Source of the DNA: Carya illinoinensis
Taxonomy: Eukaryota; Streptophyta; Magnoliopsida; Fagales; Juglandaceae
Assembly: GCF_018687715.1 (NCBI RefSeq)
Contig: NC_056752.1
Location: 12,911,501 to 12,975,500, forward strand
DNA: 64,000 nucleotides
Direction: 5' to 3'
Program-made: the position numbers and the translations under genes
Notes under the pieces: model-generated
Told to the model about the DNA's origin: nothing
The model's database searches: none
What the model saw: only the letters and a program-made list of their open reading frames with translations
Part shown: positions 20,790-27,758 of the stretch, piece after piece
How the letters are laid out: every line of letters starts with the position of its first letter
Position numbering within the stretch: position 1 is the stretch's first letter

Positions 20790-23700
20790 TCACCATGGCC
20801 TTCCTTTCCCTCCAAGCCGACGTGCCAACTCAATGTCCTTTTTCACTGAGTAAAAGCAAATGAAACGAGTTTCAATATTTTGAATTGCCAGTGGGACAGA
20901 AAGATAGAGTAACTCAAATTTTGATCTGAATAAATCATATGCGGTACGCCACCAGTAGATTATATGATATTGACAAATTGCATTTACTTCAACAGGTGGC
21001 TAATCCCACAACTCTATGCAAATATTAACCTGACCATTCCCTGAAGAGATCAGAGACGCTCCGCCACCACCCCCCCCCCCCCCCCCCCCCCCCAAAAAAA
21101 AACAGCAAAACAAAAACAACAAACAAAAAGCTCCCCAAGTACACAGAAGACTCCTGAAGAATACTTGAAAGGTATATCTGCTAAAAAGATAGCAACAATT
21201 TTTCAGCCAAAAACCAAGTAAACCAAAGGAAGAAAATCTTCAGATAGGAAAAGCTACTAAAATATTACAGGGGGAAGGAAGCTCTGATCTTTCTGAATAT
21301 ATTGTGAAATTTGGTTCGCTATTTCGGACTGAGAAACAGATCATTTTATCTGGACTGACACGGTATAGATGCCTTTTCCAATTCTCTAAGCGGAATGGAA
21401 GTTCAATCTACAAAAGACACACTAAGGTGAAAATCAAGCATTCAGAAAAAATTTAGCTTCAAGAATGAGATCGCCAAAAGGTATAACACTCTATCTAGCA
21501 CAATCTACAACTTGCCTTCAGTAAACTAATTGCCATATTCCATTTCCTAAGAGACAAACCAGTTGTCCCGTTCAATCTGACTAGCCAAGCCATGATGCTT
21601 TAAAAGTTGTCCCGTTCATTTTTTTCATATTATATTACTAAAGGTAGACTAAAAAACTTCGTATCTCTAAATTTCAACTTACTCAAAGTTACACGCTTCG
21701 CATGAATTGCACATAGCATTCCATCTTCAAATAAATGGACCAAAAAGTCCTCTGCTGCCTAGGAATAAAACAAACCAATAAGGGTATAGTCTTTATGTAT
21801 ATTAATGCTAGCAAAAGTTCAGAATTGCACCATCTCTCTTGATGTAGTCAAAACTTGAACCAAAAAGCAGAAGTAGATACAATAATTTGCCTCATAGTGG
21901 TAAACAGTGTTACCAAAGGAGAGTTCCTATGCACTTTTCATTGACACATTTTGAGATAGCATTATATCAAGAGTCAGATTCTGCTGTGCCACCAAACTTG
22001 CTTGCCATGTTAGTCCATGAGTTCAAAGATATAACAAAGTACATCAAGATTAAATCATCACCTATCAGCAAGCAAACTCCCATGGCATTTGAAAGTAAAC
22101 CAGCAAAAGTTAACGACCCTAAGTTTATAATTATGGAAATCATCTTGCGTAGATTAGTCATACCCAAAGTAAATGAGGGAAAAGTCTGTTAGAATATATG
22201 TGGTGGCCTATGATTTAATGGGATAGTGGTAATCCTGAAACTAAACCCAAGTAATTTTCTTAGGCTTATTTATAATCCCTCTCCAGAGAAGAGCAGAAGC
22301 TCTAGAACAAGTTTGAAATCTCCCTCTTGAGATGATCTGAGAACTAAGTAGAACATGTAAAAAATGCCCATAATGGTACTCAACAAAGAATTAATGCCTT
22401 AAACACGATAGTTGTGCCATTCACAACCAATGGCATAAAAGCAACTGAAAGACGGATTGCTTCAACATCATACAAAAGAAGCAATCATTGTACTGTATAA
22501 GTCTCTCAATGACTAACGGATATTATAACTTCAATCCATTCGCCCAAGTCAATATACTATAATCTCAGGGTGCATGCAGTGAGATTAGTACGTTGTGATG
22601 ATCAGTATATTACAGTTATCAGAACCAAGAAGCATGTCGAGGCACTGGATTTGAAAATGAGAAAGTTAAAATGTTGTAGATATCATTTGATGATCAACAG
22701 CATATTTTCTGGGAAAATTACTTTTAAAAAAATGAAGAAAACAAAAAGAAGACCATTAGTGATTATTATAATGAAAAACTCATGATAGAGTTGTCTTGTA
22801 TAATTATCATCGAGAGTACTATTTATGTCAATGTATTGAAGTATTTGGGGCCATTTACATTGATCCTGTTTGCTCATTCCAATAGGTTTTATTTGTTAAT
22901 TTCCCATCCGATTTGATTAATACTTATGAACTATCTGGAGTGGAAAGCAAAATGGTGATGCCTCTCAAGCAGAGCACCGAGTCATGAGTGCCTATCATAT
23001 AGAACTTATATTGAATAGAAGTAAGCAATAAACAACTGTTGTTTTTTATTCAGCAGTCGCTACCATATATAGACAACATCATAGATTAAGGCCGCCTTCT
23101 CAAGCATATTGTGGTCAAAATTGAAAATACATTAGAAACTTTTAGGTGCAGAGACTATACATATGTTTACAATTAGAACAAACAATATTTGGGAAGACCA
23201 GAAATTTCATAAGCAGAGCACGCAAAAAAGAACTTCCAAATTATAAAAACATAGGATCCACATGATCATTCCCAAGACATGCATGTTGGTAGGTGTTATA
23301 CACTTCCAAGCCTTCCAATATATATTATAGGTACATAACAAAAAATTTATATACCTCCTGCAGTGCTACTAAAGCTTCAGCTGTCCAACGACTAACATCT
23401 GGAGAGAATTGAAAGGTTATCTGTTTTACCTACAAATGACAAGGACTATTTTCATGTTAAACTTCAATACCAAACCTAATTGACACATGCCATAGACCGA
23501 AGTCAACAATAGCCCAATGCTAAATATTGATCAAACCGGCCATAAATATAACAAAAGAATAAAATGGAGCATCTTAATGAGAATGTTCGTTTACACATTT
23601 TAAATTGAGAAAGTCTGAATCTATAGACCGGAAAATAAACCCAACAGTGCAATCATCATTTTAAGACCATAAAGGATTCCACAATTCCTAACAACAATAT

Positions 23701-27706: not shown

Positions 27707-27758
27707 CTGATTTTCTTGGATTTCCTTTCCTGTTAGCGGTATGTTTGATCCTCGCCAT
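20790..27758 (-). CDS. CENH3: Centromeric histone H3 variant CENH3, seven exons
   Basis: CENH3 replaces H3 in centromeric nucleosomes and is the base on which the kinetochore assembles. Exons (minus strand): 27758-27707, 27561-27521, 26959-26929, 26822-26698, 23430-23356, 21758-21683, 20845-20790. All introns are GT-AG and all frames join, giving 151 residues. The basic N-tail (MARIKHTANRKGNPRKS onwards) covers residues 1-52. The histone fold begins 'HYRPGTVALREIRHLQK' (53-69). Loop 1 reads 'FSPDVSRW' (91-98), one residue longer than in ordinary H3, with the Trp typical of plant CENH3. Next is 'TAEALVALQEAAEDFLVHLF', and the protein ends 'ARRLGGKGRPW', the CENH3 terminus instead of the H3 one. 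Usual plant lengths are about 155-180, so the tail is short. Residue 3 (Thr in most H3/CENH3 'MART') is Ile... the start is read as M-A-R-I. Intron 4 (3.27 kb) contains a LINE. Exon joins are mine, not from transcripts. Confidence 0.93.
21070..21102. repeat. Poly-C/poly-A tract in CENH3 intron 6
   Basis: Twenty-four consecutive C (21070-21093) followed by nine A. On the transcribed gene strand this is a T9-G24 run. Such a G-run can form quadruplexes and is prone to length errors in replication and sequencing. Confidence 0.9.
24595..26624 (+). mobile_element. 5'-truncated L1-type LINE in CENH3 intron 4 (antisense to the gene)
   Basis: Flanked by a 16-bp target-site duplication, 'tctgttcatcctttca' at 24579-24594 and 'tctggtcatcctttca' at 26625-26640 (one mismatch), with a short A-run at the 3' end. 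It encodes, in broken frames, LINE reverse transcriptase: 'SLNTIFIALIPKSNG', 'HLLF', the catalytic 'FFADDTLILCG' (around 25285), then 'GRITLMKSTLFNFPKYF' and 'SRIQFWHNLWYGD'. Endonuclease and ORF1 are missing. Many stops make it dead. The 2,030-bp length accounts for most of intron 4. Confidence 0.88.
27657..27703. repeat. (GA)n microsatellite in CENH3 intron 1
   Basis: A pure 47-bp GA run (CT on the gene strand) beginning two bases after the exon 1 splice donor (GTCCTCTCTC). It fills about a third of the 145-bp first intron. It probably varies in length between individuals. Confidence 0.95.

What the first reader, a model, noticed from the sequence alone, without database searches (positions are those of the whole stretch)
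20790..27758. A complete CENH3 gene hidden in seven small exons
Seen directly: seven segments with GT-AG borders that join in frame into a 151-residue protein ending ARRLGGKGRPW, with the CENH3-type loop 1 and Trp98. No single ORF exposes it, and the largest exon is 125 bp. It is usually single-copy, so it is the most important gene in the window.
Basis: partly seen in the sequence, partly recalled or inferred. Interest (0 to 1): 0.8.

Follow-up and report, generated by a model that had tools for sequence, protein, structure and literature searches.

The report
Pecan centromere histone CENH3 gene
This is the ordinary seven-exon plant gene for the centromere histone CENH3, here in pecan and already in public protein databases; the only fresh detail is a decayed second copy on another chromosome.

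Summary
On the minus strand, seven GT-AG exons (27758 down to 20790) join in frame into a 151-residue histone. The join is letter-for-letter identical to a public Carya illinoinensis (pecan) protein, I3843_01G069700, whose longest contig is as long as the window's chromosome, 58,059,119 bases. Loop 1 is one residue longer than in pecan H3, Trp98 is present, and the end is RRLGGKGRPW. It separates with plant CENH3 from canonical H3 at 100/100 support. A possible E2F site (GCGGGAAA) lies about 150 bp before the ATG, near reported CENH3 E2F sites.

Alignable noncoding sequence differs by K2P 0.27, roughly the age of the walnut-family genome duplication (published Ks 0.36-0.48); flanking synteny was not shown. 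Intron 4 holds a later LINE-like insertion; its empty site survives on chromosome 2. Expression and centromere loading were not testable. An ordinary orthologue.

The parts
27707..27758 (-). CENH3 exon 1 with ATG
   Evidence: GT donor abuts a (TC)n repeat
27521..27561 (-). CENH3 exon 2 (N-terminal tail)
26929..26959 (-). CENH3 exon 3 (N-terminal tail)
26698..26822 (-). CENH3 exon 4 (end of tail, alpha-N and start of the histone fold)
23355..23429 (-). CENH3 exon 5 (loop 1 with Trp98, start of alpha-2)
21683..21758 (-). CENH3 exon 6 (rest of alpha-2 onward)
20790..20845 (-). CENH3 exon 7, ending RRLGGKGRPW, with TGA
27905..27912 (-). E2F-type octamer GCGGGAAA on the gene strand, 147-154 bp before the ATG
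   Evidence: only exact match in 64 kb, 0.71 expected per 64 kb; for E2F sites in other CENH3 promoters
24584..26640 (+). LINE-like insertion in intron 4, oriented against the gene, flanked by an 11-bp direct repeat (24584-24594 and 26630-26640); its right edge lies 57 bp from the exon 4 donor; the chromosome 2 copy has the empty site with 10 of the 11 repeat letters
   Evidence: LINE nature is my reading, not tested against a family library

Best explanation
This is the functional pecan (Carya illinoinensis) orthologue of plant CENH3 (HTR12/CENP-A): a histone H3 variant that replaces H3 in centromeric nucleosomes and so marks where the kinetochore assembles. Shown here: the gene structure, identity to a public protein, CENH3-type residues, CENH3 placement in a tree, and no other intact copy found. 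Inferred from the family: loading at centromeres, essentiality and cell-cycle (E2F) control. A decayed duplicate on chromosome 2 is probably the other copy from the walnut-family whole-genome duplication, after which one working gene remained.
For: In-frame seven-exon join with GT-AG borders. 100% identity to public pecan protein P0001; the next three hits are Morella rubra (74%, called HTR12), an unnamed protein (76%) and Fagus crenata CENH3 (64%). Loop 1 one residue longer than pecan's own H3.1, Trp98, and a C-terminal PW absent from H3. Trp98 invariant in 36 of 36 aligned CENH3 proteins, itself included, my choice from 120 hits. Tree: 18 CENH3 rows against 7 canonical H3 rows, split 100/100. 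Genome search, 15 matches at E up to 1: 5 are this gene's exons, 2 the chromosome 2 relic, 7 canonical H3 genes (3 intronless, 4 with introns; their Phe-type loops read), and 1 a weak 33% match with four stops. Seven exons and six introns is the structure reported for Gossypium CenH3 (PMC4308911, passages).
Against: No transcript, protein or centromere-localisation data were available. In one search a canonical-H3 protein (P0005) ranks fifth, and 11 of the 120 listed hits carry the canonical DLRFQ loop. The genome search did not find this gene's own exons 2 and 3, so very short pieces elsewhere would be missed. Whole-genome-duplication origin of the relic is inferred: no flanking gene pair was shown, and the test with a neighbouring gene did not complete because the tool was busy.
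Confidence: 0.96

Rival explanations
1. It is a canonical or replacement H3 (H3.1/H3.3) gene with introns.
For: It has a core-histone Pfam match and is 51-54% identical to pecan's three intronless H3 genes.
Against: Loop insertion, Trp98, divergent tail and GGKGRPW end; 100/100 split from canonical H3 in the tree. Pecan's canonical H3 genes, with and without introns, are elsewhere and have the Phe-type loop.
Confidence: 0.01
2. The exons are intact but the locus is unexpressed or non-functional, and another copy does the work.
For: Intron 4 carries a LINE-like insertion ending 57 bp from the exon 4 donor, and the exon 1 donor lies on a microsatellite.
Against: The reading frame and splice sites are intact; the genome search shows no other intact copy; the chromosome 2 copy is broken in several ways.
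Confidence: 0.02
3. The chromosome 2 relic arose from a dispersed segmental duplication rather than from the juglandoid whole-genome duplication.
For: Recognisable homology runs only from intron 2 to about 0.5 kb past the stop; no clear flanking anchors were found when 170 kb of chromosome 2 was compared with the window and with 40 kb to its right; the neighbouring rhodanese-like gene has no chromosome 2 partner.
Against: It keeps introns and orientation; its divergence (K2P 0.27, alignable parts only) is near the published duplication Ks of 0.36-0.48; mobile-element-like sequence is frequent around both loci and could erase anchors.
Confidence: 0.3

Closest known systems
Plant CENH3 / HTR12 (CENP-A family)
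   Same: Seven exons, histone fold, loop 1 longer than H3, Trp in alpha-2, GGKGRPW ending, divergent tail
   Different: Nothing beyond ordinary divergence; I77 and V81 occur in no other of the 81 CENH3 hits examined (1 of 81 each, the pecan protein itself) but are shared with the Juglans fragment P0009, so probably a walnut-family trait
Cowpea CENH3.1/CENH3.2 and their pseudogenes (PMC7738545, abstract and passages)
   Same: Duplicated CENH3 with decay of extra copies
   Different: In cowpea two copies are still functional and the paper finds a duplication independent of whole-genome duplication; in pecan the second copy is fully degraded

Membership tests
Plant CENH3 | Histone H3 fold | tested here: met
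   By sequence only: Pfam Histone, E 8.9e-37, residues 31-144; matches CENP-A and H3 chains in the PDB.
Plant CENH3 | Loop 1 longer than in canonical H3 | tested here: met
   One extra residue (aligned at Ser96) against pecan H3.1
Plant CENH3 | Trp in place of H3 Phe after loop 1 | tested here: met
   Trp98; Phe in own H3.1 and in all seven canonical H3 genes found; invariant in 36 of 36 chosen CENH3
Plant CENH3 | Divergent N-terminal tail and plant CENH3 C-terminus | tested here: met
   Ends GGKGRPW; Pro150 in 76 of 80 and Trp151 in 77 of 79 non-gap rows of the 81 hits chosen for a GG[KR]G end, absent from H3; tail against H3
Plant CENH3 | Groups with CENH3 rather than H3 in a tree | tested here: met
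   18 against 7 rows, 100/100; order inside the CENH3 group mostly unresolved
Plant CENH3 | Seven exons, six introns | tested here: met
   compared with Gossypium in PMC4308911
Plant CENH3 | Incorporated into centromeric nucleosomes | not testable with these tools
   Needs ChIP or immunostaining
Plant CENH3 | Transcribed, essential | not testable with these tools
   No expression or mutant data

The most novel reading that the evidence does not exclude
The two CENH3 genes brought together by the ancient walnut-family allopolyploidy coexisted for a long time, possibly exchanging exon 6 sequence by gene conversion, before one decayed. The relic's exon 6 holds 60 of 61 identical bases, and exon 6 as a whole differs by K2P 0.07 while noncoding sequence differs by 0.27. 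Pecan would then record which parental centromere histone won.
Probability: 0.15. Interest if true: 0.4.

Novelty: already known. Interest (0 to 1): 0.12.

Why it matters
CENH3 is the epigenetic mark of centromeres and (from general knowledge) a target gene for haploid induction in crops. A verified single working copy with exact exon coordinates is useful for pecan. The chromosome 2 relic is a worked example of CENH3 returning to one copy after duplication.

Tried and rejected
Flanking-gene synteny between C1 12.9 Mb and C2 7.7 Mb: the rhodanese-like gene at 42997-43665 has no C2 partner. DNA comparison of the window and of 40 kb to its right with 170 kb of C2 gave, apart from the CENH3 block, scattered matches, many of them hitting several places as repeats do; none was taken as an anchor (one at 15984-16265 lies in collinear order but has no assigned identity). 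A PYL/RCAR-like ABA receptor exon (name from recall; Pfam calls it Polyketide_cyc2) and a PORR-domain gene lie on C2 within about 60 kb of the relic. tblastn found the PYL exon nowhere in the window and found neither gene in the 40 kb to the right; the PORR gene was not tested against the window, and whether either has a partner elsewhere on C1 did not complete.

Exon 6 conservation in the relic: the longest stretch with at most one mismatch is 68 columns of 3084, against a mean of 37 and a maximum of 68 in 2000 shuffles; outside exon 6 it is 36. But only about 3 synonymous changes were expected in 61 bp (chance of none about 0.03), so past purifying selection can explain much of it. Not pressed further.

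A longer E2F-like pattern of my own gave no match in the window. tblastx of window against C2 was too noisy to use. Literature, within the open-licence library only: no paper with both CENH3 and Carya illinoinensis (0 hits); CENH3 + Juglans + centromere gave 2 papers that look off-topic from the listing; CENH3 + Fagales gave 2, judged from the listing. Searches were seen as listings; from them I read passages of PMC549713 (mostly about CENP-C, not used), PMC4308911, PMC9899254, PMC7738545, PMC8839901 and PMC6671561. No paper was read whole.

Full report
The window is C1:12911501-12975500 of a 674 Mb genome in 17 contigs. The best protein hit is a Carya illinoinensis protein whose longest contig is 58,059,119 bases, the same length as C1, so the species is pecan.

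Observation. The seven exons named in the parts list were each found once on the minus strand, with GT-AG introns, and join into 456 bp encoding 151 residues plus stop. None of the 7 ORFs of 150 aa or more in the window overlaps the locus.

Identity. P0001 (I3843_01G069700, 'hypothetical protein'; core histone domain) is identical over 151 of 151 residues. The next three hits are Morella rubra HTR12 (74%), an unnamed protein (76%) and Fagus crenata CENH3 (64%). The search scored only the 7988 candidates sharing most words, of which 7969 passed, and listed 120. Of these 120, 81 have a GG[KR]G motif in the last 12 residues. Of the other 39, 11 carry the canonical DLRFQ loop (one ranked fifth in the whole list), one is the truncated Juglans model, one has an extended end, and 26 end in close variants of the CENH3 C-terminus (the count of 26 is by eye). 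Against pecan H3.1 the protein has one extra loop-1 residue (aligned at Ser96), Trp98 for Phe, and an extra C-terminal PW. A tree of histone-fold regions separates 18 CENH3 from 7 canonical H3 rows with 100/100 support; relationships within CENH3 are mostly unresolved. Three of the 21 CENH3 proteins that I had listed were dropped because they lack the PGTV anchor that I used to trim. The PDB search returns CENP-A/H3 chimeras, H3 chains and fission-yeast Cnp1 among the closest solved relatives (best 60 of 179 shown).

Copy number. Searching the whole genome with the protein gave 15 matches at E up to 1. 5 are exons of this gene; 3 are intronless canonical H3 genes; 4 are exons of intron-bearing canonical H3 genes (sequences read); 1 is a weak 33% match with four stops; and 2 lie about 8 kb apart on C2 (7682945-7683031 and 7690747-7690833). 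The search misses very short exons: exons 2 and 3 of this gene itself were not found.

The C2 relic. Fetching C2 showed a collinear series of 10 matching patches, same orientation, between window 20278 and 27453, introns included. Exons 1 and 2 have no recognisable counterpart; exon 3 is partial with deletions; exon 4 has a 1-bp insertion, a 3-bp deletion and a lost donor (GT to AT); exon 5 is mostly deleted; exon 6 has lost its acceptor (AG to TG) and gained a base; exon 7 has 2-bp and 11-bp deletions. As it stands it cannot encode an intact CENH3. In seven segments that I chose, 2836 aligned noncoding columns give K2P 0.27; exon 4 gives 0.267, exon 7 0.185 and exon 6 0.07. Because only alignable parts were counted, 0.27 is a low estimate. 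Ding et al. 2023 (PMC9899254; passages, section 7 read) give the recent Ks peak as 0.36-0.48 for the six Juglandaceae other than Rhoiptelea, pecan included, and describe the family as an ancient allopolyploid lineage. The relic therefore fits that event better than the older gamma triplication. I could not show flanking gene synteny, so this is an inference. Return of CENH3 to one copy after polyploidy is described in PMC4308911 (passages) and PMC7738545 (passages).

Intron 4. Comparing C1 with C2 exposes a roughly 2 kb insertion in the pecan gene, flanked by an 11-bp direct repeat at 24584-24594 and 26630-26640, with the empty site kept in C2, where 10 of the 11 letters match. Its open pieces look like LINE reverse transcriptase (my reading; not tested against a family library). 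It is oriented against the gene. Its right edge is 57 bp from the exon 4 donor and its left edge about 1.15 kb from the exon 5 acceptor, so an effect on splicing is not excluded.

Promoter. GCGGGAAA, an E2F-type octamer, occurs once exactly in the 64 kb window, on the gene strand, 147-154 bp before the ATG (0.71 expected per 64 kb, so a hit this close to the start is unlikely but not decisive). The same octamer is discussed for Boechera CENH3, with E2F sites at -163 and -115 in Arabidopsis (PMC8839901, two passages). Heckmann et al. 2011 is known to me only from a reference list. No match to this octamer lies near the C2 relic; the single hit in the 170 kb examined is 58 kb from it.

Verdict. 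It is an ordinary CENH3 orthologue, publicly present under a bland name. The extra result is the chromosome 2 relic, which supports this locus as the only working copy.

Noticed in passing
G000:C2:7681499-7695655 (L024, L025): Decayed CENH3 copy with introns, collinear with the window gene; its exon 6 keeps 60 of 61 identical bases while other parts have diverged by about a quarter.
   Followed up: yes
27657-27706: (TC)n microsatellite on the gene strand begins within a few bases of the exon 1 donor (GTCCTCTC), a weak-looking donor that could vary in splicing between cultivars.
   Followed up: no
21070-21093: Poly-C run of 24 bases inside intron 6, a likely assembly or length-variable spot.
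   Followed up: no
P0009: A Juglans CENH3 'isoform X2' of 108 aa stops exactly where exon 5 ends here, suggesting alternative splicing or a misannotated model in walnut.
   Followed up: no
30000-35250: A second LINE-like element with reverse-transcriptase-like sequence lies upstream of the gene (my reading, not tested).
   Followed up: no
42997-43665: Exon of a gene that looks like the thylakoid rhodanese-like protein TROL (name from recall; Pfam gave no match); the whole-genome search found only weak 32-34% relatives elsewhere, on C13 and C14.
   Followed up: partly
54260-54479 and 63220-63439: The same arrangement of 51-bp and 11-bp tandem repeats occurs twice about 9 kb apart, bracketing a gag-pol-like region (56812-61878, my reading of the ORFs), as long terminal repeats would.
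   Followed up: no
1-6000: Very AT-rich stretch (20-24% GC) at the left end of the window.
   Followed up: no
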